IMG/VR virus record: IMGVR_UViG_3300034198_010091
Coordinates: 1-55,460 of that record
DNA: 55,460 bases
From: a virus
Strand: one strand, 5' to 3'
Under the pieces are notes generated by a model, which was not told the origin of the DNA, did no database searches, and worked only from the letters and a program-made list of their open reading frames with translations. The position numbers and the translations under genes are program-made. This document shows, piece after piece, positions 6,411 to 55,460 of this stretch (the first letter of the stretch is position 1; every line of letters starts with the position of its first letter).

Positions 6411-6417
6411 TATTTAC
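6411..6417 (-). promoter_or_regulatory. Late promoter box GTAAATA
   Basis: GTAAATA, 5-nt gap, ATG at 6405. The box contains the stop codon of the terminase C-part gene. Confidence 0.65.
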
Positions 6418-9257
6418 CATTGCATCACTCTCTCCATAGCATCATATCTATCCTGACTATAAGATCTAGATGGGTCCACATAAGGCATTGCTCCATTCAG
6501 AGGCATCCAGCCTTCAGCAAATAATCCAGCCATTTCATCATCAGCTTCTCCAAATGCACCAAAAGCCATTGGAGATAGATTAGAATTCTCGATTTTATCA
6601 ACTTGTTCATTTGTATAGATAGATGTTGGATTTTCAAACATCTTTATACCGTAATTATATGGAGTTATCTTAGCGGGTTTACCATAATCATCTTCTTCAT
6701 CGATTTCGAAATACATTTGTGTGATTTCTCGATGTAAAATCATCAAAGCCCAAACAAATGCCATAACACGGTCATCATGTTCACCACCTTTAGCTTTCCA
6801 TGTAGCGTTTGGATATCTAATAAATGTTTTGAATTCATTCAAGGTATGAATTGATCTGAATGTTACGTTTCTGATTTCATTAATGAAATATCTCTGATTT
6901 AAAATAGCAGCATGTTTAGTATTGGTATGAGATAATACTCCAAACTGTTGATTTTTGTGTGCTTGTTTCGCACCCCATGACACAACCTTCTCATAGGCAA
7001 AATCCATTGCTAATCTATCACAAACTTGACCACCTTGGTTATTTCTTTCAATTAAAACTAATGGACTTCCCCAATTTAGGAGAATATCATGTAATTTATT
7101 AGAGAATTCTGCTGGGGCTATAGTATTACTATGATATTCAGCAACTTGTCTGATATCTTTGAGATCAGTAATGTCTAGCATTTGAATTACAGAGGCATCT
7201 CCACCAACTCCTTCAGATACATCGACACCCGCCACGTATAATCTTGATGGATCTGGATCTTCCCAAATTTTATAATGACCATCATCTAGTAAATGCTTGG
7301 GTTCCGAACAGTTTTTCTTCAATTCATCGAATAATTCAACATCGATAGCTGAAGTTCCATCATCTGCGAAGTGACATTCATATTCTTGGGCGAATGCTTC
7401 ATATGAACCCAGTTTGGCTATTTCTTTGCGCTTCCACTCCTCATCACGACCGGGAATTTCTGTCCACTGAACTTCTTCTGGGTGAAACTCATTCCACTCA
7501 GGAGTTCCCTCTTTTAATGCCGCCGAATAAAAAGTATGAAATATATTATTTTTACCCTTCGGGGTTGATGTTATTAGGATTTTTGATGTTTTGGCTCTGG
7601 AAATCGTTGGTATAACCGAACGAACAAAGTCTTCCACAATACTCTGAGGTTCCAAATACGAAAATTCATCCAATAATAAACATTGATGACTGACAAAACC
7701 ATTGGTGATATATTTAAAATTTTCAGATGCTACAATATCATACACTTCTGTCATCCCCCCATCCTCAATTTTCACAACTTCTTCGTATCCACTCTCAGTT
7801 TTTAACTGATCTCCAACTTGTAACCCCGATACTGGTATTTGTACATCGTTATATGTGAAAAAAATATGATCTTTGGTTATGCTGACGGATCTTTTAGTAG
7901 TAAAAACTTCCACACATTCTCGAACTCCGTTACTGATTACATTTTTAAACTTTTTGAACCCATCATCGGTCAATATTTCAACCTTATTATTATGAATCGG
8001 GCTGTAATCGATATGCATTATTTCTGGATATGACTCCGTATACATCTTCTTTAAATTCAGAAGCTTTTCCTTGGCCCTTTTCTTTTTCTGCGCCACGGTA
8101 TCCCAAATTATAAGCAATTTATATCCCTTATCTGTCAAATAATCATATTTTACTATATCTTTATCGATATGTTTTTGAAACAGGTGATGTTTTTCATTTA
8201 TTTCGACTATAAGTTTCTCCCCCACCAAAGCATCACAGACAAATGGGCCGATTCTTTTAGAATATTCTATGTCTTCATCCAGTATTTCGAATCGAACCTT
8301 TAAAAGCTCTAATATTTTTAACTCATTTTTACCAATATTTGTTTTATATGTATTATTGGAATTGTTCGACAACCTTCTGTCTATATGTTCGAAATATCTA
8401 TTTGAACATCGAGTCCCACAGGTTTCGGGATACTTTAATAAATAATCATTAAATACCACTTTTTTCGTATTACAAACTACACAGTGAGGAGATTCTTGTA
8501 AATTATTCACGAACCTATATGCGGCAGCTAATTTGGATTCTTTTCCATCCCAACCTATGTGATCAGTATAATTTCGAAAACTATTCAATGTTTGACGGGT
8601 CTGCTCTTCCTTATTAAGTCTTATTTCAAACATTAGAATATTGTCTCGTATCAATCTACATTTATCAATGTCTGACATAAGAATGAATTCCTCAATTATA
8701 TTAAACCTATCCAAACATTGCACATATGCGAACTTCGGCTGAAATAATTTTCCGTTTTTGTTTATTATTGCTTGTTTTGTTTTTGAAAAATTTAAATAAA
8801 ATATTCTCGTTCTGATAGATGGATTGAATTCATCGAGATACTTTGTATCGTTCATCAAATATTCTAAAATATATGGATGTTTTTTGACATTGCTTATGGC
8901 TGATGCCGATTTAAAAAATGTTCTTAGCTGCTCATCATTCAACTTACTCAAATCAAACTGTTCATATAAAGTATCACTATATCCGAGTTCAAATGATAGA
9001 TATCTATAATTTCTCCCCTTTTCAGAGTTGCTGGGTATTTCTCGAATATCATTGAAATAGTGATATGCCCGTTGACCCATCTCTTTTCTCAAAAAATGAT
9101 CATCTAAATATGATGTCTTTTCTTTCAATTCATCATACAAATGTGGATATTTTTTAAATAATGTATATATACTATTTGATTTTTTGCTATCCTTGTATCG
9201 GTCAAACACAAAGTCCAGATCTATAGAGTTGCTCAATCGTCGTTTCATATATAGCAT
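6414..9257 (-). CDS. terL (C-part): Vsr-like endonuclease fused to split-intein C-part and terminase large subunit C-part
   Basis: 947 aa. Residues 1 to about 415 are a homing endonuclease: a zinc cluster (HCVVCN ... CGTRC), then a Vsr/EDxHD-like core with CDALVGEKLIVEINEKHH and YKLLIIWD. Residues about 424-525 are an intein C-part with block B (SITKDH), block F (EVYDIVASENF) and end VSHQ. From Cys526 the terminase resumes with Walker B (LLLDEFS), the ITSTPKG coupling motif, and a RuvC-like nuclease (VAGVDVSEG, LIERNNQGG, HDDRVMAFVW). Trans-splicing with the product of 9202-10899 would yield full gp17, the motor that packages DNA. The start is ATG 9257 or ATG 9248; both lie inside the upstream IntN coding sequence in another frame. 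An internal ATG at 8018 could yield IntC-terminase without the endonuclease. Confidence 0.92.
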   Translation of the reverse strand: MLYMKRRLSNSIDLDFVFDRYKDSKKSNSIYTLFKKYPHLYDELKEKTSYLDDHFLRKEMGQRAYHYFNDIREIPSNSEKGRNYRYLSFELGYSDTLYEQFDLSKLNDEQLRTFFKSASAISNVKKHPYILEYLMNDTKYLDEFNPSIRTRIFYLNFSKTKQAIINKNGKLFQPKFAYVQCLDRFNIIEEFILMSDIDKCRLIRDNILMFEIRLNKEEQTRQTLNSFRNYTDHIGWDGKESKLAAAYRFVNNLQESPHCVVCNTKKVVFNDYLLKYPETCGTRCSNRYFEHIDRRLSNNSNNTYKTNIGKNELKILELLKVRFEILDEDIEYSKRIGPFVCDALVGEKLIVEINEKHHLFQKHIDKDIVKYDYLTDKGYKLLIIWDTVAQKKKRAKEKLLNLKKMYTESYPEIMHIDYSPIHNNKVEILTDDGFKKFKNVISNGVRECVEVFTTKRSVSITKDHIFFTYNDVQIPVSGLQVGDQLKTESGYEEVVKIEDGGMTEVYDIVASENFKYITNGFVSHQCLLLDEFSYLEPQSIVEDFVRSVIPTISRAKTSKILITSTPKGKNNIFHTFYSAALKEGTPEWNEFHPEEVQWTEIPGRDEEWKRKEIAKLGSYEAFAQEYECHFADDGTSAIDVELFDELKKNCSEPKHLLDDGHYKIWEDPDPSRLYVAGVDVSEGVGGDASVIQMLDITDLKDIRQVAEYHSNTIAPAEFSNKLHDILLNWGSPLVLIERNNQGGQVCDRLAMDFAYEKVVSWGAKQAHKNQQFGVLSHTNTKHAAILNQRYFINEIRNVTFRSIHTLNEFKTFIRYPNATWKAKGGEHDDRVMAFVWALMILHREITQMYFEIDEEDDYGKPAKITPYNYGIKMFENPTSIYTNEQVDKIENSNLSPMAFGAFGEADDEMAGLFAEGWMPLNGAMPYVDPSRSYSQDRYDAMERVMQW
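7683..7988 (-). other. Split intein C-part (IntC) in terminase
   Basis: About 102 aa immediately before Cys526 of the 6414-9257 ORF. It carries block B with the TxxH-type SITKDH, block F EVYDI, and the end TNGFVSHQ. It resembles the Ace Lake TerL split intein (KILSPNGF there, VEILTDDGF here). The terminal residue is Gln rather than Asn; the +1 residue is Cys. Confidence 0.88.
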
Positions 9258-10899
9258 TATTTAGTCTGACTGTGACATTTGTGTTAGCGTTAACGCAATT
9301 GATAGTTTGTCCCCGCGCTGCTGAACCAGTCGTGGTGGAAATACCTATAAGACTACCGTTAGCAAATTCTGAACTTTCTTGCCCCCAAGTTACAACAGCG
9401 GGTTTTAACCATATGGGAAGTTCTTGATAAGCTAATTTGACCCGTTTAAAGATCATCTTCGCAGTATCTTCTTTGTTTGCCACGATTACAGTATTTTTAT
9501 AATCATGGAAACACGTATACCATAGTGCCAAGATCGTTAACACCGTGGTATTGTGGGTTGGAATATTTGTCCTTCCACATAAAAATAGACTATCAGGTGA
9601 ATCTACGGTAATGCACCTCACTGGAACCGACTCAACTTCTTTTATCTCTTTGATATAATGCCATTGATTCCTTTTATTTGATTCTGGAGTTGATATTTCA
9701 TTAATTATAATTCTATCCTTTTTGAAAGGTAGTTTACAAACATATTCTCTTGGTTTAAACTCTAATACTCCACATTCTTTACACTCTATACCATATAATG
9801 TCGGTATTTTAGTTTTGAATGTTGTTTTATACCCCAAACTCTCAATCAATTCTTTAACTTGATGGCATAATTGAATATTGGTGTTGTAAAAATTACAATT
9901 TCCTGATTTATCAACATAACCATCAGAATCTATCAAACCCATCAATAATTCCAATCTTTGATCTCTAGACCCCAATAGGTATTCTGGTGGTATATGTTTA
10001 TTTCCAATCAAATTAGACTGTCTGAGTTCTTTATGTAAAGAAGTCTTATATTTCTCATTCCGATCATTTTTTCCTAGATTAATAGAATAAATATTTCGAT
10101 TTTTGTGATATTGGATATTGATACCGTATCGATCTTTATATTTTTGCAAATTATTAACAGTTTCCTTTAGATCTCTAGTCCCTGATGTGATTCTCGACCC
10201 GTCTGTTGCCCCGTCACCCAACCACATTCCAAGAATATACGGATCTATAATGTAATCCTTTTCACTATTTTCCAACCCTTGCACGCAAGAAGGAATTCTA
10301 TAAAAAGGTTCTCCTGCTTTTGTCGTGTGATCACCCAACATCTCCTTAGTAGTTTTTACACTACCTTCTTTATTTTTTCGATTTCTGTCATTTTTCGATT
10401 GAACGAACCAATTATGATCAGCATCCGCCACAATTTCTTCCCCATTATCAAATATAACAGAATAACATTTCCTATCATAGAGAATTTCATGAGCCTTTAC
10501 GACACGACAAATTTTTCCATCTATACCATACAATTCATCCCCATCCTTTAATTCACCTATGGTTGTCCATCCATTTGGGGTATTAATTGGAGTATCCAAG
10601 GCTAATGCTTTTCCACTTTGACGACTTGACAATACGATATTGAATCGATGGTCTTTAAAAGCTTTTAATAACCTTAACTGATAGGGTAATAAAGGAATCA
10701 ACACTTTACCCAAATCCGGTTCAATTATGTAAAAGTAATTCTGTGCAAAATAAACAAGATCGTTCTTACACTTCTCAATCTCCAAAGCCATCTCTGGAGT
10801 GTATTCAAACTTAGCATCTTGGGATGGTAAATTTGGATTACCTAAATACATCTCCTTCTTGGATAATTTGGGTTCTTTAATTTTAGATAGTCTAGGCAT
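9202..10899 (-). CDS. terL (N-part): Terminase large subunit N-part with a cis intein and a split-intein N-part
   Basis: 565 aa. Residues 1-97 are the gp17 N-terminus up to the Walker A (SSRQSGK). Residues 98-450 are a full intein. Residues 451-534 continue the ATPase (TTVLTILALWYTC, then VIVANKEDTAKMIF, then GSAARGQTIN). Residues 535-565 are a short intein N-part starting CVNANTNVTV. N-exteins (181 aa) plus the C-extein in the next ORF (422 aa) give 603 aa, against 610 aa for T4 gp17. The gene has a TTAAATA box 6 nt before its ATG in a divergent promoter region. Its last 56 nt overlap the next ORF in another frame. Confidence 0.95.
   Translation of the reverse strand: MPRLSKIKEPKLSKKEMYLGNPNLPSQDAKFEYTPEMALEIEKCKNDLVYFAQNYFYIIEPDLGKVLIPLLPYQLRLLKAFKDHRFNIVLSSRQSGKALALDTPINTPNGWTTIGELKDGDELYGIDGKICRVVKAHEILYDRKCYSVIFDNGEEIVADADHNWFVQSKNDRNRKNKEGSVKTTKEMLGDHTTKAGEPFYRIPSCVQGLENSEKDYIIDPYILGMWLGDGATDGSRITSGTRDLKETVNNLQKYKDRYGINIQYHKNRNIYSINLGKNDRNEKYKTSLHKELRQSNLIGNKHIPPEYLLGSRDQRLELLMGLIDSDGYVDKSGNCNFYNTNIQLCHQVKELIESLGYKTTFKTKIPTLYGIECKECGVLEFKPREYVCKLPFKKDRIIINEISTPESNKRNQWHYIKEIKEVESVPVRCITVDSPDSLFLCGRTNIPTHNTTVLTILALWYTCFHDYKNTVIVANKEDTAKMIFKRVKLAYQELPIWLKPAVVTWGQESSEFANGSLIGISTTTGSAARGQTINCVNANTNVTVRLNNAIYETTIEQLYRSGLCV
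9205..9297 (-). other. Split intein N-part (IntN, 31 aa) in terminase
   Basis: Begins with Cys535 right after GQTIN and ends at a stop after IEQLYRSGLCV. Only block A is present, so the split lies between blocks A and B. This very early split is the arrangement known for the AceL-TerL intein, whose IntN is 25 aa. Confidence 0.85.
9258..9264 (-). promoter_or_regulatory. Late promoter box CTAAATA inside the IntN coding sequence
   Basis: CTAAATA directly abuts ATG 9257 and lies 9 nt from ATG 9248, the two candidate starts of the endonuclease-IntC-terminase ORF. It is encoded by Leu-Asn-Asn codons of the terminase IntN. Spacing is less regular than at other genes. Confidence 0.5.
9550..10608 (-). 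other. Class-3-like LAGLIDADG intein inside terminase Walker A
   Basis: 353 aa between SGK and TTVL. It starts with Ala instead of Cys/Ser and ends PTHN, with Thr at +1. Block B has ADADHNWFV (Trp two after the His), block F has VRCITV (Cys at position 4), and block G has Thr before HN: the W-C-T trio of class 3 inteins. Two LAGLIDADG motifs lie in the middle (YILGMWLGDG and LLMGLIDSDG), so it encodes its own homing endonuclease. Removal restores GKTT. Confidence 0.93.
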
Positions 10900-12718: not shown

Positions 12719-12722
12719 GTGT

Positions 12723-13508
12723 ATGGGATGCCCTCCAACACCTTTATCTTGTTTAGAACCATCGAACATATTTGCTGGCGTATACAATCCTCGATGTGGA
12801 GGGTTTGCAGATCCTAGTAATTTTCAAGCTGAGAGAGCTATATTTAAAAGTGGCTTTGATGAAATGATCAATAACTATGGGGTGGAATTCAATTATTATG
12901 TAAATGGATTCAATCTATCAGCTATGAATATGTTGTATGGGGAACATCCAACTCAGGAATATTCTGAACCTATTATAATTAAGGCTTACTTAGAATTGGA
13001 AGAGTCTATATCTTTATCGAGATGGGGAATGGAATCAAGTGATGATCTCACAGCGTATATATCAATACGAAAATTTACTGATGTCATGACACCTCTAGCA
13101 TCCTCATTTTATATTGAAAATGGTCAAAGAATAGAGCCAAAATCTGATGATTTAATGGAAGTTACAGCTTTGGGTTGTGATCGTCCGGGTAATAGAGGGT
13201 CTAAAATATTCAGAATAACAGAGGTATTAGATCAAGACGTTAGTGGTGGGTTAAATCCAATGCTTGGGCATTATGTGTGGAAAATAACTGCAAAACGTTA
13301 TGAGCACGATGGGTCCACTAACGCACCTGAAGAAATTGGTAATGATCAAGTATACGACAACGAATTCAGTGGTAAAGTATCGTCTGTATTGTTCCCGTCC
13401 TTAACTGCTGATGATAAAGTTTATTCATCAAATGCTGATGATATTTCTAAGAATGAAATATATGATATGAATAAAAACGATAATACTTTATACGGCGAGT
13501 ATTATTGA
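12723..13508 (+). CDS. gp14: Neck protein, gp14-like head-tail connector
   Basis: 261 aa, close to T4 gp14 (256 aa). The pattern fits the family: GVEFNYYVNGFN, a long segment with YSEPIIIKAYLELEES ... ISLSRWGME, the oxidising-sounding block LTAYISIRKFTDVM, PKSDDLMEVTALG, then FRITEVLDQD and HYVWKITAKRYEH. In T4 gp13 and gp14 seal the filled head and join the tail. The N-terminus is unusually Cys/Pro rich (GCPPTPLSCLEP). It has its own late box and ends converging (7-nt overlap) with the protease-fibre gene on the other strand. No gp13 is seen beside it. Confidence 0.7.
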   Translation: MGCPPTPLSCLEPSNIFAGVYNPRCGGFADPSNFQAERAIFKSGFDEMINNYGVEFNYYVNGFNLSAMNMLYGEHPTQEYSEPIIIKAYLELEESISLSRWGMESSDDLTAYISIRKFTDVMTPLASSFYIENGQRIEPKSDDLMEVTALGCDRPGNRGSKIFRITEVLDQDVSGGLNPMLGHYVWKITAKRYEHDGSTNAPEEIGNDQVYDNEFSGKVSSVLFPSLTADDKVYSSNADDISKNEIYDMNKNDNTLYGEYY

Positions 13509-15136: not shown

Positions 15137-15540
15137 AAAATATCCCAAGTATTATTACCCAAATGATATATTTGAGTTGATGTTTGTGAAGAGATTATAT
15201 TCCCACTGAGAGTTGTATTATAATTCAAGGATACACTTAAGTTAGAAGGTATAATCCTTAAATTTCCAACACCTGAATTCCTAATAAAGATCAAAACCTT
15301 GTCTGGGAATACGTTAGATGGAACATATAAAATATGATCCTCTGTGTGTATTTTTTTAATGATATATCCAGTGTCGGATAATGATAATGTATATGTTGAC
15401 CCATCAATTTCAACATAATCGATGAAACTATACATATTGGAATTCTGCACGAGATAATTCTTATTATCTTGAACGATTGGAGTGAATCCACCGTAAGGAG
15501 CAGTAGATAAAGTTGGAAATTGTGAAATTTTTATATCCAT
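15133..15540 (-). CDS. Small fibre or baseplate protein with KISQ-type N-terminus
   Basis: 135 aa from ATG 15540, fixed by a TTAAATA box 5 nt upstream; a longer reading would run into the next gene. The N-terminus MDIKISQFPTLSTAPYGGFT is the common phage fibre start (KISQLP... followed by a segment like VPIVQDG), shared with the protein at 25351. The rest is predicted beta-rich (DGSTYTLSLSDTGYIIKK, VLIFIRNSGVGNLRIIP). It is followed with overlap by the protease gene, with which it may form a tail-associated unit. Confidence 0.65.
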   Translation of the reverse strand: MDIKISQFPTLSTAPYGGFTPIVQDNKNYLVQNSNMYSFIDYVEIDGSTYTLSLSDTGYIIKKIHTEDHILYVPSNVFPDKVLIFIRNSGVGNLRIIPSNLSVSLNYNTTLSGNIISSQTSTQIYHLGNNTWDIL

Positions 15541-15544
15541 ATTA

Positions 15545-17731
15545 TTATTTAACGATAGACAATGCTTGATATAAGGTATCAAGGATCATATGATCAAATA
15601 CTCCAGATTTTTCATACAATAAATCGTTCGAAACATATCTATCTATGTTTGTTTTGGTATTTTTGTAATCAATTACACCACCTATCGGTGTGTCATCAGT
15701 ATTATCGACATAATCAAAAAACATATAATACTTACCGATATCGGCTATATTAAAATCTGTTGGTAATACTAAAGGCCAACCCCAGTTACTATTATAGCTT
15801 GATAATGGATATGTATTAGAACTTAGAGATATACTCGGCTGATATGTGTTTAGTTTGAGATATGTATTGCTAAATTTTTCGAGTGCGACTATAGGTGTGT
15901 TCTTATCTACTGTGTATGTAAAAACATCAATTTTATCCCCAATATTTTTTCCATATTCTAGTTTTGATGTTCTTCCTTGAATATCAAAATTCTCATTAAA
16001 TTTATTCAATTCACCGACCAAAGAATGTTTGTTTAAGGATGCTAAATTGATAATTCTCTTCAATTTTTCAGGATATGTATACTTTTCTTCTCCTGTATCA
16101 TTATAATACAAATAATCGGAGATCGAATTCAGATAATCCACTTCACATGTGTCTAAATTCTGTGTATTATTTATAAAATTGCTGATTTTTTCATATATTT
16201 TGACACCTATATCCTCGTGATTAAGATTTTCATTACCCAACACACCACCAATAAAATCTTCGAATAATCTAGGTTTATTCATCATCGATTCTTGAAATAT
16301 TAAATCTTGTATAGTTTTTGAGGATGAAAAATCTTCATCTTTCTTATACAGATCGTAAAAATTTTTGTTATACACATTAAATTTATTAGATTGTCCAGTT
16401 AAAGTATATGTTGATAGTTGATCGCTTGAGAGTGTCGTGGTTATATTAATAGTCACATTGTATATAGGATCAGATAGATCAGTAAACTTAACAAATCCTC
16501 TAAAAAATCCATCACCACTAGGATCATTTAATTTGTATATGTTATAATTCTCTGATGGTATTAAATAATGTAAACCACTTCCGTATATAATGGAACCACT
16601 TTCATCTAACAATTCTTGACCACCTTCATTTAACAAGACAACATCTCCAATAGCGGATAATGTTATATTTAAAGATGATAATTGAATATTATTAAAATTC
16701 TTCACAGTCGTATTATCGACATCTTTAATCTTTACCACGAATGGTATTTCCGTGTTGGAAAATTTTATAGGTGAAATATTAAATGATTGACTGATGTATT
16801 TTTCACCATCCAACCCATTTGATGTAATTGATAGTTTGTATGCAGGATTATCTGTGATTTTAGCACTTAACGTTATTCCTAAATTATTCAAATAATTAAC
16901 CTTTGATTTATTGTAAAACTTTACGTCATTATTTGTTTTATCGAACCAAGTTTGGATTAGTATTTTATCTGATATACTATCATCTTTGAAATACGCTTCA
17001 CCCTCACAAATTTTTCCTACGACTTTAGCATTTGGGTCATCTTTTGAACATCGTTCTATGGAACTATTTTTTACTCTAGCATATACATCTGATCCACTGA
17101 GAGTAATATAAGGTATCTCCTCATATTCGTAAGAAGATAACAAATAATTATAATTCTTTTTATAGAAAGTATTGTATTTCTGTAAATGATTAAATTTATC
17201 AGAACTAAGATTCCAATAATTAATTGAATTACTACCAGATACACTATAAAATATGTTAGATACTGATTGATACGGTGGGAAGTAACCAGTGAATATGATT
17301 GGTCCTTCTATAGATCCAACCTTAAATTTCAAATCATCTATAATGTCGAAAATTATCTGATCACCATCTTCAGATATCATCGGATTGCCATCCTCTGTAA
17401 TAACCCTACCATTTATATTAATTTTATGCGTGAAAGGTATATAATCTTTTATTACAATACTCTTTTCGAATGTTGAAATTTTAGCATTCGTATCACAATC
17501 ATATATGATCAAGTTCACATTATATGTTCCGGGAAATGTGTAATGCTTACTAGCCGAATATGCTGTTGTTGTGGTCCCATCTCCAAAATCCCATACAAGT
17601 CTGCTAGTTGTTTTTTTATCTAGATCAGGATAAAATATTAAGGGGGTTAATTCTAAAGCATAAGAAGATAAAGAATTCTCATTCTTGTAGTCTATAGAAC
17701 TAAAATTTATATATGTGGTTGTATTACTCAT
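15545..17731 (-). CDS. Large baseplate or tail protein with a PKD domain
   Basis: 728 aa. A PKD-type beta-sandwich is clear near residues 35-85: RLVWDFGDGTTTTAYSA, then HYTFPGTYNVNLIIYD. The rest is long and beta-rich with repeated short phrases (LLNEGGQELLDESGSIIYGSG). The start ATG overlaps the gp6 stop (ATGAGTAA), so it is co-translated with the baseplate wedge gene. In T4 the genes after 6 are 7 and 8, and this may fill that wedge role or be a decoration. PKD domains usually mediate protein or carbohydrate contacts at surfaces. Exact equivalence is not established. Confidence 0.65.
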   Translation of the reverse strand: MSNTTTYINFSSIDYKNENSLSSYALELTPLIFYPDLDKKTTSRLVWDFGDGTTTTAYSASKHYTFPGTYNVNLIIYDCDTNAKISTFEKSIVIKDYIPFTHKININGRVITEDGNPMISEDGDQIIFDIIDDLKFKVGSIEGPIIFTGYFPPYQSVSNIFYSVSGSNSINYWNLSSDKFNHLQKYNTFYKKNYNYLLSSYEYEEIPYITLSGSDVYARVKNSSIERCSKDDPNAKVVGKICEGEAYFKDDSISDKILIQTWFDKTNNDVKFYNKSKVNYLNNLGITLSAKITDNPAYKLSITSNGLDGEKYISQSFNISPIKFSNTEIPFVVKIKDVDNTTVKNFNNIQLSSLNITLSAIGDVVLLNEGGQELLDESGSIIYGSGLHYLIPSENYNIYKLNDPSGDGFFRGFVKFTDLSDPIYNVTINITTTLSSDQLSTYTLTGQSNKFNVYNKNFYDLYKKDEDFSSSKTIQDLIFQESMMNKPRLFEDFIGGVLGNENLNHEDIGVKIYEKISNFINNTQNLDTCEVDYLNSISDYLYYNDTGEEKYTYPEKLKRIINLASLNKHSLVGELNKFNENFDIQGRTSKLEYGKNIGDKIDVFTYTVDKNTPIVALEKFSNTYLKLNTYQPSISLSSNTYPLSSYNSNWGWPLVLPTDFNIADIGKYYMFFDYVDNTDDTPIGGVIDYKNTKTNIDRYVSNDLLYEKSGVFDHMILDTLYQALSIVK
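15546..15552 (-). promoter_or_regulatory. Late promoter box TTAAATA
   Basis: TTAAATA, 5-nt gap, ATG at 15540. The box covers the stop of the PKD-domain gene. Confidence 0.75.
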
Positions 17732-19532
17732 CTACTACAACAATTTTGGTTATTAGTGATTTTGGATTATATATGTAAGGAAATTTAAAAAACTGTAAAG
17801 TCGTTGTCTGATTTATTAGACTTTCATCAACACCATCATATACTGGGTTCCATGAAATGAACGATAATCCATTATAATATATATTCTCTTTGTTATTAAA
17901 AGTCTTTAAAGACTTCACACCGTCTATTGATAAAATTGATGATGTTATATCGGACATATTTATAGTTTGTCCGAGTGTAACATTTGTTGGTTTGAAATAA
18001 TTTAGAATGATATCAACTACTTTATTTTTTATGCTTTCTTTATTTATATTGTTATTCTTTTCTCTAACAATTATCAGTTGTGTATCTTTCGAAATATCCT
18101 TTGTTATTCCGACATTAGCAAATCCGATATCCAAAGCTATGTATACCGGATCTCTTGGAACTATTTCATTGGATATCATCTTCTTATCATCGGTCAAATC
18201 CTTAACAAGATTTTTGAAACTATTAGTTAAGAAATCTGGGTATTGAGCATCTTCTAATATTTGAAATTTTGGAACTAGGAACACATTAACGTTATTAAAA
18301 TCACAAGAGTCTGCGAAATTTACTTGATTCAATATAACCCGATTAGATTTGTTTGGATCTATACATATTTTGTAAAAATAATCGATATATTCATCTACGA
18401 ATGTTTTGTTATTCACAACTTTAACATCTTGTAAGATATTTGGTATAGACTTTTTGAGATATCTTTCAAAATCATTCTCGGTTACTAGTCTAAGTTGAGA
18501 TGATAAAAATGTGGGTGCATTTTCTCTTATCTCCTCGACAGTTTCAGCATCTTGAATTATAGTTGAATTGGATGGATTCGTGAAAGTTAAGAAATTTCTA
18601 TTCGAGTCTGAAATTAAAGTAGAGTCCAATTCTTGAGTAAGTCCATCGTATATTGTATTAAACCTAGAGCTATTGTAGGTGAACAATTTATTACCGTTTA
18701 TGGCATTTTTACTTATCTGTCCTTTTTGACCATCGCTGAGAATATAAAAAACAGCAACTTCGTCTCCGGGATTTAATTTTCTCCCAAAAACTGAATTACC
18801 AAATTTAATTTCGTAATGTCCATTTTCATTGAGCCTCAACTCATATACACGTTTATTAGACTCTGTTAAATACAAACTATCTGACTCAGTATATTCAAAC
18901 CATGTGTCATTATCTAATTCTTTAACATATACGCTAATCGAATTGTGTGAGATAAATCTAGTATCTTTACTATCTACGATATTATCCACAACAATCGGAA
19001 AAGTTTCGTAGTTTAATCCTTCCGCTGTATATATCGGATATTCCCCGACAGTTCCTTGATATAGGATAGAATTTTCTCCAATAGAATCAATTTTCTCGTC
19101 TCCACTTATCAATTTTTCAAAATATTCGTCGTTAGGGAAAGTGTATTGAATATTATCGATTAAAAAATAGCTATATTTACGTATACGGTAGTTACCAACA
19201 TTTAAACTACCAGATGCGTTACAATCAACTGAAACAAGAGAGGTCTGTTTACCTGTAGGCTTATAACCTATCATTTTTACGATTTTATTCATGTTCTCAT
19301 AGATTGAAGCCTGTGAAAATGACGACTCAGATGATGTTTGGTTCAAATAAAATAACAATACGTGGGTAAAATAGCCCAGTATATCTAACAATGATGATAT
19401 ATTAGAACCCTCATAATTTTGATCTGTAAACTGACCCTCTTCGTTCAGCCTACTGATCATGAATGATTTCAATGATGTAGCATCAAAATTAACGTATGCA
19501 TTTTGAGGTAAATTGTAATCGGGCGTTGCCAT
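17724..19532 (-). CDS. gp6: Baseplate wedge protein gp6
   Basis: 602 aa (T4 gp6 is 660). The N-terminal signature EGSNISSLLDILGYFTHVLL followed by FYLNQTSSES and a paired IGYKPTGKQ block is typical of gp6, as is the middle segment RLVTENDFERYLKKSIPNI. gp6 dimers join baseplate wedges into the iris ring that drives sheath contraction. A CTAAATA box precedes the ATG by 6 nt, and gp25, its known wedge partner, is the gene just upstream. Confidence 0.9.
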   Translation of the reverse strand: MATPDYNLPQNAYVNFDATSLKSFMISRLNEEGQFTDQNYEGSNISSLLDILGYFTHVLLFYLNQTSSESSFSQASIYENMNKIVKMIGYKPTGKQTSLVSVDCNASGSLNVGNYRIRKYSYFLIDNIQYTFPNDEYFEKLISGDEKIDSIGENSILYQGTVGEYPIYTAEGLNYETFPIVVDNIVDSKDTRFISHNSISVYVKELDNDTWFEYTESDSLYLTESNKRVYELRLNENGHYEIKFGNSVFGRKLNPGDEVAVFYILSDGQKGQISKNAINGNKLFTYNSSRFNTIYDGLTQELDSTLISDSNRNFLTFTNPSNSTIIQDAETVEEIRENAPTFLSSQLRLVTENDFERYLKKSIPNILQDVKVVNNKTFVDEYIDYFYKICIDPNKSNRVILNQVNFADSCDFNNVNVFLVPKFQILEDAQYPDFLTNSFKNLVKDLTDDKKMISNEIVPRDPVYIALDIGFANVGITKDISKDTQLIIVREKNNNINKESIKNKVVDIILNYFKPTNVTLGQTINMSDITSSILSIDGVKSLKTFNNKENIYYNGLSFISWNPVYDGVDESLINQTTTLQFFKFPYIYNPKSLITKIVVVDE

Positions 19533-19538
19533 TATTAC

Positions 19539-19545
19539 TATTTAG
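19539..19545 (-). promoter_or_regulatory. Late promoter box CTAAATA for gp6
   Basis: CTAAATA, 6-nt gap, ATG at 19532, in the gap after gp25. Confidence 0.78.
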
Positions 19546-19546
19546 C

Positions 19547-20032
19547 TCACAAAATAGTGTATCCAACATTATTCAACTCTGATTTGATAGAAACGCCGTA
19601 TATATTCAAAGACGGGACATCGATAGTCAATGATATATTGTATTGATTGATGTCTTCATCCCCTATAACAGATACATCCCGCACAACAACCCTTGGTTCC
19701 ATTATAGGTAGTTGTGTTTCGATCAGGTCTTGGATGATTTCTGAAGTAAAATCATCGATTGGTTCGAATACAAATTGTCTCAAATCGACCCCATAGGTGG
19801 GATTTAGTATTTTATCTCCCGGTGACGTTAAAAACGCTGTTGTGATGCTATTTTTAACCGATTCTATGTCATATATTGCTCTGACATCTTTCAGAGTTTC
19901 TGTTTTATTTAATTGATTGTTATACGATACGTCTTGAGATAAATCTAACGCTAAATCTTTATATAGATAATCACTTTTCAGAGATTTATCTGAAAGTTTA
20001 TCTATTTTTAGGGAATTGATTTTAATTGCCAT
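19547..20032 (-). CDS. gp25: Baseplate wedge protein gp25 (lysozyme-like family)
   Basis: 161 aa, slightly longer than T4 gp25 (132 aa). The conserved core is present: DVRAIYDIESVKNSITTAFL, TSPGDKILNPTYGVDLRQFVFEP, then ETQLPIMEPRV and the closing strands. gp25 seeds sheath assembly on the baseplate. Unlike almost every other structural gene here it has no TAAATA box before its ATG; an endonuclease gene is inserted directly upstream and ends 5 nt before it, so gp25 now depends on read-through. Confidence 0.93.
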   Translation of the reverse strand: MAIKINSLKIDKLSDKSLKSDYLYKDLALDLSQDVSYNNQLNKTETLKDVRAIYDIESVKNSITTAFLTSPGDKILNPTYGVDLRQFVFEPIDDFTSEIIQDLIETQLPIMEPRVVVRDVSVIGDEDINQYNISLTIDVPSLNIYGVSIKSELNNVGYTIL

Positions 20033-20037
20033 ACACG

Positions 20038-20754
20038 TTATATCGTTAATTTTTCAACTTTATGCCCTTTGCACATTTTAATAATATTATTAGAACATCT
20101 ATTTAGATTAGATGATTCTAAATTATTTTCTCTAGCATACTTAGCCAAGTTATCGACAATTATTTCTTTTCCATTTGGGTCAGTTATCAAAAAACGTCCA
20201 TTATACTTTGTTTTTTTATTCAAGATTTTTAATCCATACTTTTCTTTAACCGATATATACTTTTTGGGTTTGTTTAAAATTGAACTTACATTATTCGGTT
20301 TACATTTTACAATCTTAGCTATTTCAGTAACCTTCATATTTTTATTATATAAATCAAACATCAAAATCACATCCTCGTCTGTAAAATTACGCAGTGCCTC
20401 GAATAGATTTTTGATTGATTGCTCGGATGATTTTCTCCCTAAACTACTCCTAGCATTTTTACATATATTATACCTAGGATTTAAAATGTCTAAATAATAT
20501 TGCTCTCGATCAATACATTGATCTCTTTCACACACCTCCACAATTTCAAATACGAAATCAGTAGTCCTTGCGTTATAAGCATTTTGTAAAAACACACAAG
20601 GATTCTTGTTCAACTTTAAAAGTCTATTATGAGCCGAAAATCTTCTTCCCAAACTCACTGATGAACTTCCAATATAAAAATTATCGTTTGCTGGATTTGT
20701 TATTTTATAAACCCCAGTTTGATCACATAATTCTTTACTCAAATTTATCGACAT
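20038..20754 (-). CDS. GIY-YIG homing endonuclease
   Basis: 238 aa from ATG 20754, placed 1 nt after the TGA of the upstream gene; the longer reading overlaps that gene by 160 nt and is rejected. The GIY-YIG core is at residues 13-30 (GVYKITNPANDNFYIGSSS), with the Arg of RRFSAH and the Glu in DREQYYLDILNPRYN following. The C-terminal part contains a helix-turn-helix-like segment (MKVTEIAKIVKCKPNNVSSIL) and a NUMOD-like tail that would bind DNA. It is a selfish mobile gene inserted between a virion gene and gp25. Confidence 0.9.
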   Translation of the reverse strand: MSINLSKELCDQTGVYKITNPANDNFYIGSSSVSLGRRFSAHNRLLKLNKNPCVFLQNAYNARTTDFVFEIVEVCERDQCIDREQYYLDILNPRYNICKNARSSLGRKSSEQSIKNLFEALRNFTDEDVILMFDLYNKNMKVTEIAKIVKCKPNNVSSILNKPKKYISVKEKYGLKILNKKTKYNGRFLITDPNGKEIIVDNLAKYARENNLESSNLNRCSNNIIKMCKGHKVEKLTI

Positions 20755-20755
20755 A

Positions 20756-22558
20756 TCAGTCCCAGTTATCACATGACAATTTTTTAGCTGATCCGGGTTT
20801 AGCATTCGAGCAGGAATGTCTAGACCTAAATGCTTTAGCTCTTTTAGAATTTCCACCTCCAACCCGAACACCCTTTTGTCCAAAATGTATTTTCTTATAG
20901 GAACCATCTGGTTGCTTTGCACATTTCATCCATTTTTTACCTTTTCGGTCGCTGCTGGTTTTTTTAGTTGGTCCAGTGCATTTTTCTAAAATCTCTAGCA
21001 AGTCACATTTGTAGTCATCTTCATCAAAAGACATTTCGTTTAATACTCGATCAAAAAAATCATCAAATGATTCATTTTTTATTTTAGTTTCGTCTTCGAT
21101 ATTCATTTTTAAGAATGCAGGTGGAGTTTTTCCACGATCTATCATCCATGGACGATCTACTCTTTTTTTCATCTGTTCCTTTGAGAAGGTTGGGATCGGT
21201 AACTGATCTATTAAACCTTTTATGTAAGTTTTGGTGTTAGGATCACTCCACTCTGCTTTACTCTCTGAAGTATTGGTTGATAGTTTTGTTAGCAATGTTG
21301 ATAATTCTCCTTTAGATGCATCTGTCACAGTTGTATTAAGCTTATCTAGAGCAATTGGATTTTTATCTGAACTTCTAAGGGAACTATAAACTCTCGATAA
21401 AACCATGAATGGTAGTTTATTGAAGTCTCGCATGGTTGTAATATTAACATTTTTATCCAATGCTCTACCAGTATCGAAATCTTTATTCTCGTAGTCTCTT
21501 TCAAATCTAGCAAGATATCCTAAAATCGGGTTAACATTTTCATCATCAGATTCTAGAGCTTTTAAACGATCAATTGCATCGTTTAAATTCGATGGCATCT
21601 GATCCCAGTTTAGTTGATCTAAAGATTTAATCTCAGTCCCAGCCTTTTCTTGATATTCTTTAACTAAACCGGATGCGGTAAATTTAATCAAGTCTAAAAA
21701 TCCAGATATAGCTGCTTCGTTAACTGCTTCATTCGTTTGATTAATTTGATTGATACGATCATATAAATCCTCAAGTTCCTCAGTGGTTTTTTCTAATTTA
21801 TCTTCCCATTTAGCCATCTTTTCCTCAATATCATAAATATTAGCCTTTAATTTTTCTATATCAACAGGCTTCATAGTCGCTTGATCAAAACGATCTCTTT
21901 TTTTATTTAAAATGGTCGCTAATTCACTAACAGTCTGTTCAATTTTGCCTTTCTGTTTTTCGCTCTTAGCTCTACCTTTTTGGGTATTTAAAGTTTCTAT
22001 GTTCGCTTCTATCTTAGAAATCTCCACTTCCATATTATCCTTTTCAGATGGGGGTAATTTTGTTCGATTAATGATTTTATTCTTCTTATCTAGATCATCT
22101 CTCATACCAGTCAAATCACTTCGATATTTTGTTTGATTTCTTTCAAGCTTTTCTAGTTGATTTTCTTCATCATACTTCTCAACTTTCCCGTTTTCATCAA
22201 CTCCTCGAATATTCTTATACGAATCTCTTGAATCATTAAATCGTTTTGTTATTTTTTGAACCTGTTTATCAAAAAATGGATCATTGAATAGGAGTCTAAA
22301 CGATGTTAGCATACTCTTCCACAGCTTTGATTCTGTAGCAAATCCAGATTTACCTGTATTTTGAGATGGATCATACTCCCAACGATCTATTGGTGTGCTT
22401 AATTCGAAATTATCAGACTTACCGACTGAACTAGACGAATATCCCGATGGGCCTTCCGATTCTTTTGTTCTATTAAGCCTAGCACCTCCCATATTTTTAG
22501 GTGCTGATGGTCTAAACCCAGCTTCGGTAACTATTTGAACCAATTTATCAAACTTCAT
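20756..22558 (-). CDS. Coiled-coil virion or assembly protein
   Basis: 600 aa from ATG 22558 (late box 5 nt upstream). N-terminal MKFDKLVQIVTEAGFRPSAP resembles capsid-targeting peptides. Residues about 110-290 are a long Lys/Glu coiled coil (LEKLERNQTKYRSDL, IEKLKANIYDIEEKMAKWED). The C-terminus has an amphipathic FDDFFDRVLNEM, then a Cys/Lys-rich domain with KGKKWMKCAKQPDGSYKKIHF and RHSCSNAKPG, a domain I have seen at the ends of T4-like marine phage proteins. It may be a scaffold, an internal head protein or a baseplate assembly factor. Function not recognised. Confidence 0.6.
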   Translation of the reverse strand: MKFDKLVQIVTEAGFRPSAPKNMGGARLNRTKESEGPSGYSSSSVGKSDNFELSTPIDRWEYDPSQNTGKSGFATESKLWKSMLTSFRLLFNDPFFDKQVQKITKRFNDSRDSYKNIRGVDENGKVEKYDEENQLEKLERNQTKYRSDLTGMRDDLDKKNKIINRTKLPPSEKDNMEVEISKIEANIETLNTQKGRAKSEKQKGKIEQTVSELATILNKKRDRFDQATMKPVDIEKLKANIYDIEEKMAKWEDKLEKTTEELEDLYDRINQINQTNEAVNEAAISGFLDLIKFTASGLVKEYQEKAGTEIKSLDQLNWDQMPSNLNDAIDRLKALESDDENVNPILGYLARFERDYENKDFDTGRALDKNVNITTMRDFNKLPFMVLSRVYSSLRSSDKNPIALDKLNTTVTDASKGELSTLLTKLSTNTSESKAEWSDPNTKTYIKGLIDQLPIPTFSKEQMKKRVDRPWMIDRGKTPPAFLKMNIEDETKIKNESFDDFFDRVLNEMSFDEDDYKCDLLEILEKCTGPTKKTSSDRKGKKWMKCAKQPDGSYKKIHFGQKGVRVGGGNSKRAKAFRSRHSCSNAKPGSAKKLSCDNWD

Positions 22559-52566: not shown

Positions 52567-52573
52567 TATTTAA
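52567..52573 (-). promoter_or_regulatory. Late promoter box TTAAATA
   Basis: TTAAATA, 5-nt gap, ATG at 52561; it covers the stop of the gp41 C-part. Confidence 0.75.
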
Positions 52574-53067
52574 TTCTTGGAAAGTCTCTCCAACACGCTC
52601 AGTTCTTCATCATCCATCAATTCCTCCGATTCCTCGCTCTGAGATATACTCAAAGTTTCATAATCTATACACATAGGTTGAACCATTCCTCTGGGACCAT
52701 ATCGATTCTTGATCATCCCCAGCTTAACTAACCCCAACTCCATATCTTCTTCTGTTTGGAATATGGATAATATAACATCTGATACGTGCGCGATCCCCAT
52801 GGAGTTTTTGGTTAATATTCCATTACAATAAAATAATTGATCTCCAGTAACACTAATATCGACTGTTTCCATATCACCCAACGCCACAATGTCTAAAATT
52901 TCATCATTATATTCTAATAATAAATCACTTTTATTATTTTTGTCTTCTTGTTCACTTAATACTAGATTAACCACCTCAACACATTGCTCGGTGTCAATAT
53001 CTGGATTGATTAATCCAATATTTTTCATCAATTCCACCCTCTCTCTCACAAATTTATCGTTATTCAT
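52570..53067 (-). CDS. gp41 (C-part): Split-intein C-part plus C-terminal end of replicative helicase gp41
   Basis: 165 aa. Residues 1-88 end in a gp41-type IntC (NDEILDIVALGDMETVDISV, then TGDQLFYCNGILTKN). Residues 89-165 are the helicase C-terminus (SMGIAHVSDVILSIFQTEED, LGMIKNRYGPRG), continuing the gp41 core after IGE. The penultimate intein residue is Lys instead of the usual His. The first 50 residues before the IntC core are an unexplained extension. Its start overlaps the endonuclease stop by 8 nt. Confidence 0.9.
   Translation of the reverse strand: MNNDKFVRERVELMKNIGLINPDIDTEQCVEVVNLVLSEQEDKNNKSDLLLEYNDEILDIVALGDMETVDISVTGDQLFYCNGILTKNSMGIAHVSDVILSIFQTEEDMELGLVKLGMIKNRYGPRGMVQPMCIDYETLSISQSEESEELMDDEELSVLERLSKN
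52804..52908 (-). other. Intein C-part (IntC) core in gp41
   Basis: About 35 aa with block F VDISVTGDQLFY and block G NGILTKN, ending at Asn88; Ser89 is the +1 nucleophile. It belongs to the gp41-1/gp41-8 family of split helicase inteins. Confidence 0.88.
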
Positions 53068-54154
53068 TTCTTATCCTATTGAAGAGTTCTTTATGTGTCG
53101 GTAATTCATCAGCCCACACATATATTATCTTAAATCCTATATTTTCAGCTACCTTCTGTTTATACTGGTCAAATTCTAAAGATTTTTCATACGTTGTGAA
53201 ATTGTTTTTCCACTCATCTTTCCTCCTAGCGTGCCAAAAGGAGTCATTATATTCTATAATAATTCTTTTTGATTTTATTACGAAATCGTATGCGAAATTT
53301 TTACCACTTACAGAATCTTTCGTCACGAATTCCTTTTTCTTAGCTATACCCCAAACAATATCATCTTTAGATATTCCACTTTTTCTCAATAATTTATACA
53401 GTGGTATGAAATATTTCAAAGACGCTTTTGATACGTGACTACTAATAAACAGCGTCCCATTATTTTTCATTCTACTTTCTAATCTTTTTAAATTTGCTTG
53501 GCGATATTTTTCAACCCCCAACACTTCACCATATCTCTCCACGAATCCCTCAAGTGAATTCAAATATGGTCGAGTGATCGTTTTCATGATCTCTTCAACA
53601 TCTTCTTTAGAATACCCCAAATCTTCCCAGTGTTTTCTACTGTTCGGTGCTTTTCTATTAACGTAACGTGTTCTAAATTTTTTTGGATTATTTAAAAACA
53701 AATTTTTATTCGCTTCTATAGCCTTAACCACATTTTTGTTTTTATAGTCATAAACCTTTTGTATTGATTCCGCTTCACTAAATCCTTTGTTTATCCAATA
53801 TTGTGTAACGTGGGGAGTTATCTTATCGACGCACAAAAGCTTAAGGTTATTGCTGTGTTTTTCACCAGATCCCTCACCATACCTGATATCCATTCGTCTT
53901 TTTGTTGATTTGGAATCATAGTATTCATAAACCAATTCTTTAAGATTTTTGGGGTTGTTGTTGATTTTATTAATCTCTTCAATAGTTTTGTGTCTTTTAT
54001 AAAAAACCTCTCTACCCATTGGGTATAAATTATAATCATTTAAATAAATTCTATAGAATTCTTTAAGATTTGTTCCTGTGTGTATCCATCTATCAAAATA
54101 TTCATCAAATTCACTCGGATCTTTGCATTGTCTTCTTTTCGGCTTATCGCTCAT
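53060..54154 (-). CDS. Free-standing Vsr-like (EDxHD) homing endonuclease of the fractured gp41 gene
   Basis: 364 aa. The N-half is basic and helical (DPSEFDEYFDRWIHTGTNLK, YEYYDSKSTKRRMDIRYGEG). The C-terminal core FAYDFVIKSKRIIIEYNDSF, WHARRKDEWKNN and GFKIIYVWADELP follows the Vsr/PD-(D/E)xK-like plan of endonucleases found inside fractured split-intein genes. It sits exactly between gp41-IntN and IntC-gp41 and has its own CTAAATA late box 5 nt before the ATG. It is related in layout to the endonuclease domain fused in the terminase ORF. Confidence 0.88.
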   Translation of the reverse strand: MSDKPKRRQCKDPSEFDEYFDRWIHTGTNLKEFYRIYLNDYNLYPMGREVFYKRHKTIEEINKINNNPKNLKELVYEYYDSKSTKRRMDIRYGEGSGEKHSNNLKLLCVDKITPHVTQYWINKGFSEAESIQKVYDYKNKNVVKAIEANKNLFLNNPKKFRTRYVNRKAPNSRKHWEDLGYSKEDVEEIMKTITRPYLNSLEGFVERYGEVLGVEKYRQANLKRLESRMKNNGTLFISSHVSKASLKYFIPLYKLLRKSGISKDDIVWGIAKKKEFVTKDSVSGKNFAYDFVIKSKRIIIEYNDSFWHARRKDEWKNNFTTYEKSLEFDQYKQKVAENIGFKIIYVWADELPTHKELFNRIRNE

Positions 54155-54159
54155 AACTA

Positions 54160-54166
54160 TATTTAG
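54160..54166 (-). promoter_or_regulatory. Late promoter box CTAAATA for the gp41 endonuclease
   Basis: CTAAATA, 5-nt gap, ATG at 54154, in the short gap after the gp41 N-part. Confidence 0.78.
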
Positions 54167-54185
54167 TATCGGCGTTACGTTTATC

Positions 54186-55460
54186 TCAAATGCTATTCAA
54201 TTTATCGCCAACATTTAATCCTTCTCGAATCGAAAGTCTACCACGGTTACTTGGGAATTTGTGATCCTCGCTCACTATTATTTCCTTCCCAGACTTCAAT
54301 CTGATTTTAAAGCATGGTTTTATTTTTTTATGATGTATCTGAGTTACTGTTTTGTATTCATCGTTTGATTTGATTTGATCTCCGAATTTCAAATCTCCTA
54401 TTTTTTTATATTCTCCACTTCTTAATGTGACCAACTGATTGACTTCTATACATTCTCCAATACCTTCCAAACCCGGATTTTCCTTACCGTATCCGGGTTT
54501 TGATAACTGACACGCTGAAAAAAACGGGCATTTGAAAATATAAGATAACGCTCTGATCTTTTCACAAATATGCTTCACTCTTTCATATGAATTAGAACCA
54601 GTTTCGGTCGTTAGCAAACTTATATAATCAATAACCACGGCATCTATATTTTCTCCAGAGTCTTTAATTTTTTTTATAAATGCTTCTATTTGCTTCGGTG
54701 TTATACTAGATGGTGGAAATTCTTTGATCATTATTTTTCCATCTGGGTTATTCTTCTTTTCATCCATTAAAGCGTTTCGCAATGGGTGAGTGTTAAATTT
54801 AAAATCCTTCATCGGGATTTTAGTGATATTGGCTGATATACGTTTGGCATACACCATTTCGGACATCTCCAGAGAAATTACAAGCACACTCTTGCCTTGT
54901 TTAGCGATGTTCGCGGCTACATTGCCCAGAAAAATACTCTTACCTATATTTGCCTGCCCAGCGAACATATAGAGTGCCTTACCAGACTCTAAATACCCAC
55001 CTCCGGTAGCCTCGTCTAACCATTCCCACCCCGAAGAAATATAATTTTCGACGTTGAGGATATCATCAATGATTAAATCGACATCTTTGTAAATCTCAAT
55101 ACCTCTATCAATATTCAGATTAATCTTACAAATATCGTCAAACGCTTCAAGAACTTTCTGAGGATTTTTTACTTTATCCTCCGCATTCTCAGCGATGTCC
55201 AGCATTTGGACCCAAGTGGCTCTTTCCTTTAAAAACCTTTCTGTATTATCATACAATTCAGCATTGTCAAATTCTTTATCTAACTTTTTAAAAGATTCTA
55301 AAAGCTTTCTAAAGTTGTTTTTGAGAATATCATTGGTTAGATATGTCTTAACCTCTGTGAAGGTTGGAAGCTTTTTTCTCTTTTCGTAAAAGTCATTTAC
55401 GATTTTGAAGTATTCGGCTATGTTTTGGTTTTCAAAGTATTCTGGTTTTACATAATCTGC
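54186..55460 (-). CDS. gp41 (N-part): Replicative DNA helicase gp41, N-part ending in split-intein N-part (5' end outside window)
   Basis: At least 424 codons, open to the right edge. The RecA-type core has Walker A FAGQANIGKSIFLGN, Walker B IDAVVIDYISLL and the sensor Gln in SACQLSKPGYG. At Cys (54450-54452), directly after GLEGIGE, an 88-residue IntN begins (CIEVNQLVTLRSGEYKKIGD), with block B EIIVSEDHKF, and ends in a stop. T4 gp41 is 475 aa; here 336 plus 77 residues are visible, so about 60 lie beyond the edge. Trans-splicing with 52570-53067 would restore the helicase. Confidence 0.93.
   Translation of the reverse strand, partial: ADYVKPEYFENQNIAEYFKIVNDFYEKRKKLPTFTEVKTYLTNDILKNNFRKLLESFKKLDKEFDNAELYDNTERFLKERATWVQMLDIAENAEDKVKNPQKVLEAFDDICKINLNIDRGIEIYKDVDLIIDDILNVENYISSGWEWLDEATGGGYLESGKALYMFAGQANIGKSIFLGNVAANIAKQGKSVLVISLEMSEMVYAKRISANITKIPMKDFKFNTHPLRNALMDEKKNNPDGKIMIKEFPPSSITPKQIEAFIKKIKDSGENIDAVVIDYISLLTTETGSNSYERVKHICEKIRALSYIFKCPFFSACQLSKPGYGKENPGLEGIGECIEVNQLVTLRSGEYKKIGDLKFGDQIKSNDEYKTVTQIHHKKIKPCFKIRLKSGKEIIVSEDHKFPSNRGRLSIREGLNVGDKLNSI
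54189..54452 (-). other. Split intein N-part (IntN, 88 aa) in gp41
   Basis: Starts with Cys, contains block A (CIEVNQLVT) and block B (IIVSEDHKFPS) and ends LREGLNVGDKL-like (SIREGLNVGDKLNSI). Size and order match the gp41-1/gp41-8 IntNs. Confidence 0.88.

What the first reader, a model, noticed from the sequence alone, without database searches (positions are those of the whole stretch)
52570..55460. Second fractured gene: gp41 helicase with IntN, a free-standing endonuclease and IntC
The helicase is split at GLEGIGE / SMGIAH by an 88-aa IntN and an IntC, with a Vsr-like endonuclease ORF between the pieces. This is the three-part fractured arrangement known from marine metagenomes, here on the same genome as a fractured terminase. 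Both replication and packaging thus depend on trans-splicing, and the two endonucleases look related, so one element may have spread within the genome.
Basis: partly seen in the sequence, partly recalled or inferred. Interest (0 to 1): 0.88.

Follow-up and report, generated by a model that had tools for sequence, protein, structure and literature searches.

The report
Fractured phage helicase gene with split intein
A phage's only replication-helicase gene is broken in two by a split, self-splicing intein with a DNA-cutting enzyme gene between the halves; this is a known arrangement, but relatives show the break persisting after the enzyme is lost, and a cultured T4-like Shigella phage carries the same break.

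Summary
The T4 gp41-like helicase is split at GIGE|SMGI into helicase-N+88-aa IntN, a 364-aa endonuclease ORF, and IntC+helicase-C. A 202,205-bp contig containing the whole window (100% identical; 123-bp repeated ends) holds no other gp41. The intein is a gp41-1 relative (PDB 6qaz, E 1.4e-18, 41% identity); the endonuclease has the Vsr/I-Bth0305I (EDxHD) fold. This is a "fractured gene", a published kind.

Comparison adds more. The same gp41 site carries this intein in 34 contig clusters plus a plaque-purified T4-like Shigella phage (ESh36), whose relatives have the empty site. The site is 12 residues from the gp41-1 site; its inteins form one clade and always end TKN, not THN. The endonuclease is intact, eroded or deleted (at least 13 changes on the tree) while the intein halves persist. 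One pair shares cassettes 95-97% identical inside helicases only 73-76% identical, pointing to horizontal homing.

"One element spread within the genome" is not supported: endonucleases group by insertion site, not genome, and the terminase split intein is a different (short-IntN, AceL/GOS-TerL-like) type. Splicing is inferred, not shown.

The parts
54453..55460 (-). gp41-like replicative helicase, N-extein (Walker A to ...GLEGIGE); first 26 residues lie beyond the window end
   Evidence: Pfam DnaB_C E 2e-22, PHROG 19 E 4.5e-56; full N-terminus in L002 2617-3969
54186..54452 (-). IntN, 88 aa, Cys1, SxxH block B, plus stop codon
   Evidence: with IntC matches gp41-1 intein PDB 6qaz E 1.4e-18
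53060..54154 (-). free-standing endonuclease ORF, 364 aa; Vsr-like catalytic domain residues 238-364 at 53063-53443 with E275, D290, E301, H308, D329, K332
52927..53067 (-). 47-aa N-terminal extension of the IntC ORF, predicted two-helix hairpin
   Evidence: homologous extension in relatives; AlphaFold2 pLDDT about 76-83 over residues 1-30; overlaps the endonuclease ORF by 8 nt
52804..52926 (-). IntC core, 41 aa, ending ILTKN
52570..52803 (-). helicase C-extein, 77 aa, starting with nucleophile Ser+1 (SMGIAH...), includes the KNRYGPRG stretch
   Evidence: PHROG 19 profile 522-589 E 2.2e-07; K, R and G invariant across relatives
9202..9297 (-). (comparison) terminase short IntN, 31 aa, at the end of the TerL-N ORF
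6414..9257 (-). (comparison) fused endonuclease (8007-9257) + terminase IntC 108 aa (7683-8006) + TerL C-extein (6414-7682)

Best explanation
The region is a fractured gp41 replicative-helicase gene. Three adjacent ORFs encode (1) helicase N-part fused to IntN, (2) an EDxHD/Vsr-type homing endonuclease, (3) IntC fused to helicase C-part. The two intein halves associate, fold into one HINT domain and join the helicase parts at GIGE-SMGI in trans (class 1 chemistry, Cys1, Asn, Ser+1), giving a 439-aa helicase. The endonuclease is expected to cut intein-less gp41 alleles at this conserved site so that the whole IntN-endonuclease-IntC cassette is copied in by recombination. Over time the endonuclease erodes and is deleted while the split intein, needed to rebuild an essential enzyme, stays. 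Shown here: anatomy, homology, fold, single gp41 copy, site-specific distribution, cassette transfer pattern, repeated endonuclease loss. Inferred: splicing activity, cleavage site, homing.
For: Anatomy. Intein homologous to the characterised fast split intein gp41-1, 46/112 identical, same IntN length of 88 aa. Endonuclease fold: Vsr 1cw0 Z 9.6, 1vsr Z 9.5, homing endonuclease I-Bth0305I 3r3p Z 9.0 over residues 238-364. No second gp41 in the 202,205-bp record whose ends share an exact 123-bp repeat. Plaque-purified phage ESh36 carries the same arrangement with a single gp41, as a precise 1,553-bp insertion against otherwise 97%-identical T4-like phages; four synonymous changes sit in the first 9 nt after the site. 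L080 versus L081: IntN 97%, endonuclease region 95%, IntC 96% identical at DNA level while helicase flanks are 73% and 76%. L083 versus L084: flanks 97-98% identical, endonuclease removed by an internal deletion leaving 105 nt, intein halves intact. Site-C inteins are one clade (SH-aLRT 95) with at least 13 changes of endonuclease presence. Purifying selection on all parts.
Against: No splicing, cleavage or homing was measured. Penultimate His, usual in active inteins including gp41-1, is replaced by Lys in the whole clade, so efficiency is uncertain. The host range and expression of this phage are unknown. The endonuclease model is of moderate confidence (mean pLDDT 74, pTM 0.36). The C-part could in principle associate with the N-part without splicing.
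Confidence: 0.9

Rival explanations
1. One element spread within this genome: the helicase and terminase cassettes are recent copies of each other.
For: Both endonucleases carry a Vsr-like core with similarly placed D, E, H/D and K residues (hhalign probability 62%, E 7.8e-5), and both are associated with split inteins in one genome.
Against: No significant pairwise match; each endonuclease matches same-site endonucleases of other phages best; inteins about 22% identical and split at different places, so cross-pairing would lack or duplicate core segments. In contig G006, which has fractured polB and gp41, the two endonucleases again group by site, not by genome.
Confidence: 0.03
2. Splicing is not needed: the two helicase pieces assemble non-covalently, and the intein parts are only retained remnants or binding clamps.
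For: Split enzymes that work without splicing are known in phages (PMC10448857 cites a phage ribonucleotide reductase gene split by an endonuclease gene into two functional peptides). The penultimate His is replaced by Lys.
Against: Cys1, SxxH, terminal Asn and Ser+1 are invariant across the clade and IntN/IntC evolve under strong purifying selection (dN/dS 0.04-0.06), more conserved than the helicase itself. The split falls inside the RecA-like ATPase core.
Confidence: 0.06
3. The gene is a decaying pseudogene or an assembly artefact.
For: The window itself is a fragment ending inside the gene.
Against: Same structure in many independent assemblies and a cultured phage, open frames under purifying selection, and no other helicase copy.
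Confidence: 0.01

Closest known systems
Fractured genes (Dassa et al. 2009, NAR 37:2560, doi 10.1093/nar/gkp095; paper not held, content from memory plus citing papers)
   Same: Conserved enzyme gene split by a split intein with a free-standing Vsr-like endonuclease gene between the halves; gp41 helicase is among the reported hosts
   Different: Whether their gp41 loci include this exact site could not be checked. Not seen by me in the literature: the clade-wide TKN end, the helical IntC extension, a cultured T4-like carrier, and the many endonuclease-less members
gp41-1 split intein (PDB 6qaz, 6riz)
   Same: Homologous over the whole HINT domain, 41% identity; IntN 88 aa; Cys1/Ser+1; SxxH block B
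   Different: gp41-1 native junction is SGY|SSS (PMC6823396), 12 residues upstream of GIGE|SMGI; gp41-1 IntC is 37 aa without extension and ends THN, here TKN
gp41-8-type inteins at ...NR|S (site A here)
   Same: Related split inteins in the same helicase, usually also with an endonuclease ORF
   Different: Different insertion site about 15-16 residues further upstream; end HN in most; separate from the site-C clade
I-Bth0305I / EDxHD homing endonucleases and Vsr
   Same: Catalytic-domain fold (Z 9.0-9.6) and E/D/H/D residue pattern
   Different: About 14-20% sequence identity; long N-terminal helical part has no assigned match; activity untested
AceL-TerL / GOS-TerL atypical split inteins
   Same: The window's terminase intein has a 31-aa IntN and 108-aa IntC, like AceL-TerL (25) and GOS-TerL (37; IntC about 104)
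   Different: A different split type from the helicase intein; terminase site here is N|CLLLDEF with a gene-fused endonuclease

Membership tests
Fractured gene (split intein plus free-standing endonuclease) | Conserved enzyme gene split into two ORFs | tested here: met
   Both pieces match one helicase profile in consecutive ranges; single copy
Fractured gene (split intein plus free-standing endonuclease) | IntN and IntC at the break with catalytic residues | tested here: met
   Cys1, SxxH, Asn, Ser+1 invariant; homology to gp41-1
Fractured gene (split intein plus free-standing endonuclease) | Endonuclease ORF between the pieces | tested here: met
   364-aa ORF with Vsr-type fold; absent in several relatives
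Fractured gene (split intein plus free-standing endonuclease) | Protein trans-splicing | not testable with these tools
   Needs expression or proteomics
EDxHD/Vsr homing endonuclease | Vsr/PD-(D/E)xK-like catalytic fold | tested here: met
   1cw0 Z 9.6, 1vsr 9.5, 3r3p 9.0, above the next unrelated rows only modestly
EDxHD/Vsr homing endonuclease | Conserved E, D, H and D residues | tested here: met
   E275, D290, E301, H308 invariant in 8; D329 in 7 of 8 (Glu in L020); one-to-one match with I-Bth0305I residues not checked
EDxHD/Vsr homing endonuclease | Site-specific cleavage driving homing | not testable with these tools
   Only the comparative transfer pattern supports it
gp41-1 intein (same insertion allele) | Inserted at SGY|SSS | tested here: not met
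   Inserted at E|S, 12 residues downstream; separate clade
gp41-1 intein (same insertion allele) | Homologous HINT domain with Cys1/Ser+1 | tested here: met
   E 1.4e-18 to 6qaz
Copies of one element within this genome | Helicase and terminase endonucleases are each other's close relatives | tested here: not met

The most novel reading that the evidence does not exclude
The E|S-site gp41 inteins are an undescribed clade in which the fracture has become independent of the endonuclease: the endonuclease comes and goes while the split intein, with a new Lys-Asn end and a helical IntC extension that may act as an assembly or docking domain, is kept as an obligate part of making an essential enzyme.
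Probability: 0.35. Interest if true: 0.65.

Novelty: new member of a known kind. Interest (0 to 1): 0.5.

Why it matters
Fractured genes were found in metagenomes and have mostly supplied engineering tools, with little known of how they live in phages. The E|S-site family supplies intact, transferred, eroded and deleted endonuclease states in one place, so the homing cycle of a split intein can be followed. A plaque-purified T4-like Shigella phage with the arrangement, and hundreds of near-identical phages with the empty site, make native trans-splicing and homing testable at the bench. The clade's Lys-Asn end and helical IntC extension are natural variants for intein engineering.

Tried and rejected
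Intragenomic spread: rejected. Intact second gp41: searched in the 202-kb record; the only other DnaB_C hit (L008, E 7.6e-4, below the curated cut-off) is a helicase of another type. Direct sequence match of the endonuclease to PDB, Pfam and NCBI-type libraries: nothing significant, so the fold search was needed. A scan of cellular genomes with the IntC alignment found no relatives. Dassa 2009 and Carvajal-Vallejos 2012 are not held, so it is unknown whether this exact site is already listed there. L087/L088 share 96-97% identical intein parts, but L087's helicase flank is only 135 nt, so this pair was not used as transfer evidence. Fold of the IntC core alone was low confidence (pLDDT under 45), as expected without IntN.

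Full report
Observation. The three ORFs are present as described: helicase-N plus an 88-aa IntN (54186-55460, cut by the window end), a 364-aa ORF (53060-54154), and IntC plus helicase-C (52570-53067), all on the minus strand, with an 8-nt overlap between the last two. The two outer ORFs match one helicase family profile (PHROG 19) in consecutive ranges. The joined helicase would be 439 aa.

Genome context. The window (an IMG/VR virus record) is contained without a mismatch in IMGVR_UViG_3300032281_000616, positions 584-56043 of 202,205 bp. The two ends of that contig share an exact 123-bp direct repeat, so it is probably a closed, near-complete genome. It holds one gp41 only. The two records may come from the same data and are not counted as independent.

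The intein. IntN+IntC matches the solved gp41-1 intein (6qaz, E 1.4e-18; 46 of 112 aligned residues identical). gp41-1 has 88/37-aa halves and native exteins SGY|SSS (PMC6823396). By alignment that site lies 12 residues upstream of the break here. A scan of IMG/VR with an IntN profile gave 113 loci, 80 kept. Of the 70 with a detectable IntC partner, three gp41 sites appear...R|S (site A, as in gp41-8, my recollection of its NR|SAVEE junction agreeing with L124)...GY|S (site B, gp41-1) and ...[ED]|S (site C, this finding). All 45 site-C contigs end ILTKN; nearly all A and B contigs end in HN. In a 59-row tree the site-C inteins form one clade (SH-aLRT 95) (quick method). At site C none of the inteins is contiguous, whereas two at site A are.

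The endonuclease. No sequence search names it, but the AlphaFold2 model (mean pLDDT 74) matches Vsr endonuclease (1cw0 Z 9.6; 1vsr Z 9.5) and the homing endonuclease I-Bth0305I (3r3p Z 9.0) over residues 238-364. E275, D290, E301 and H308 are invariant in eight site-C endonucleases and D329 is kept in seven, the pattern of the EDxHD family that published reviews describe (PMC3943268; PMC12350094 cites Dassa 2009 for the EDxHD/Vsr domain).

A cultured relative. Shigella phage ESh36 (Tequatrovirus, ON528746) has the same three-part gp41 at the same codon boundary, DIAE|SAG, again ending ILTKN. Its middle ORF is only 13-19% identical to the others overall but keeps the core residues. Compared with Salmonella phage SG1 and Escherichia phage ASO78A the cassette is an exact 1,553-bp insertion in gp41 flanked by 97% identical DNA; four synonymous changes fall in the first nine bases after the site, as expected from a co-converted tract, though other causes are possible. 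475 other T4-like records match the flanks at 95-99%. ESh36 was isolated from Washington DC sewage; phages in that study went through three rounds of single-plaque purification (PMC9686686). As gp41 is essential in T4 (established knowledge) and ESh36 shows one gp41 place only, the broken gene must somehow yield working helicase. Its GenBank record is flagged UNVERIFIED.

Mobility and the fate of the endonuclease. L080 and L081 have IntN, endonuclease region and IntC 97, 95 and 96% identical in DNA, but helicase flanks only 73 and 76%. This is hard to explain without recent transfer of the whole cassette. The endonuclease is present in about 21 of 34 site-C clusters, reduced to a recognisable C-terminal remnant in L065 and L069, and absent in about a dozen, including L010, the window's closest relative (60% identity over the IntC ORF), where 38 nt separate the halves. 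L083 and L084 differ, with 97-98% identical flanks, by an internal endonuclease deletion that leaves 105 nt. On the intein tree endonuclease presence changes at least 13 times; some low-support branches make this number approximate. The fracture therefore does not need the endonuclease to persist.

The IntC extension. The IntC ORF begins with 47 residues not found in gp41-1. A comparable extension is present in all site-C loci except L121 and L129, also where the endonuclease is gone, and has dN/dS 0.06 between L012 and L013. It is predicted as a two-helix hairpin. Its role is unknown; a docking or solubility function is a guess.

The terminase in the same genome. TerL carries a contiguous 353-aa intein at its P-loop (QSGK|ALALD...THN|TT; Ala1, so not class 1; it resembles class 3 by my reading) and a split intein with a 31-aa IntN and 108-aa IntC, the latter fused behind an endonuclease. 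The short IntN is the AceL/GOS-TerL type. Its endonuclease is best matched by the terminase endonuclease of Vibrio phage Va1; it shows no significant pairwise match to the helicase endonuclease, though profiles connect the cores. A helicase IntN (88 aa) and terminase IntC (108 aa) would duplicate core segments and the reverse pair (31+41 aa) would lack about half of the domain, so cross-splicing is unlikely (inference).

Mechanism and limits. Most likely the halves splice in trans and the endonuclease drives homing into empty sites. The break separates the Walker A part from the C-terminal KNRYGPRG stretch, whose K, R and G are invariant and which corresponds, from general knowledge of DnaB-type helicases, to the arginine-finger region; the N-part alone should thus be inactive. 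Splicing, cutting and homing were not tested.

Verdict. A well-supported new member of a known kind, with an informative family around it. Interest comes from the comparative series and the cultured carrier more than from the locus itself.

Noticed in passing
L027 1071-4205 (IMGVR_UViG_3300046007_004251): A clamp-loader small-subunit gene appears broken twice by split inteins (IntC ending HHN|TT, then a second IntN, a 520-aa endonuclease ORF and an IntC ending THN|CN), so one protein would need two trans-splicing reactions.
   Followed up: partly
L057/G006 12593-22399 (IMGVR_UViG_3300022305_001791): Three neighbouring replication genes (DNA polymerase B, UvsX, gp41) are all interrupted by split inteins on one 22-kb contig; the polymerase also has an unexplained 1.4-kb interruption (14059-15499).
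   Followed up: partly
L005 1206-5744; L006 446-4550: DNA polymerase B genes of Nitratidesulfovibrio phage SRB7757 and Campylobacter phage F379 are fractured at DTD|S with related endonuclease ORFs between the pieces; cultured phages.
   Followed up: partly
L029 3187-5061: Clamp loader fractured at GIGK|C ... HHN|TT with a very short IntN, a 170-aa endonuclease and a 132-aa IntC region.
   Followed up: no
window 9550-10608: A contiguous 353-aa intein with a probable LAGLIDADG endonuclease sits in the terminase P-loop and starts with Ala, suggesting class 3 chemistry, 250 bp before the short split IntN of the same gene.
   Followed up: partly
L049 1318-3255 (G001 about 124598-125644): A further contiguous intein in a peptidase-like gene of the same phage genome (KH|CLPKG ... 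VSN|SWGAAVD).
   Followed up: no
window 20038-20922: Free-standing GIY-YIG endonuclease-like ORF (Pfam E 1.3e-8) overlapping the end of the neighbouring 605-aa ORF.
   Followed up: no
L031 2152-5569: Vibrio phage Va1 terminase is split at FE|C ... HN|CNFLGSS with an endonuclease fused to IntC, the gene order seen in the window's terminase but at another site.
   Followed up: partly
L125 (site A locus): A site-A gp41 intein that ends YTKN, the only Lys-Asn end seen outside the E|S-site clade.
   Followed up: no
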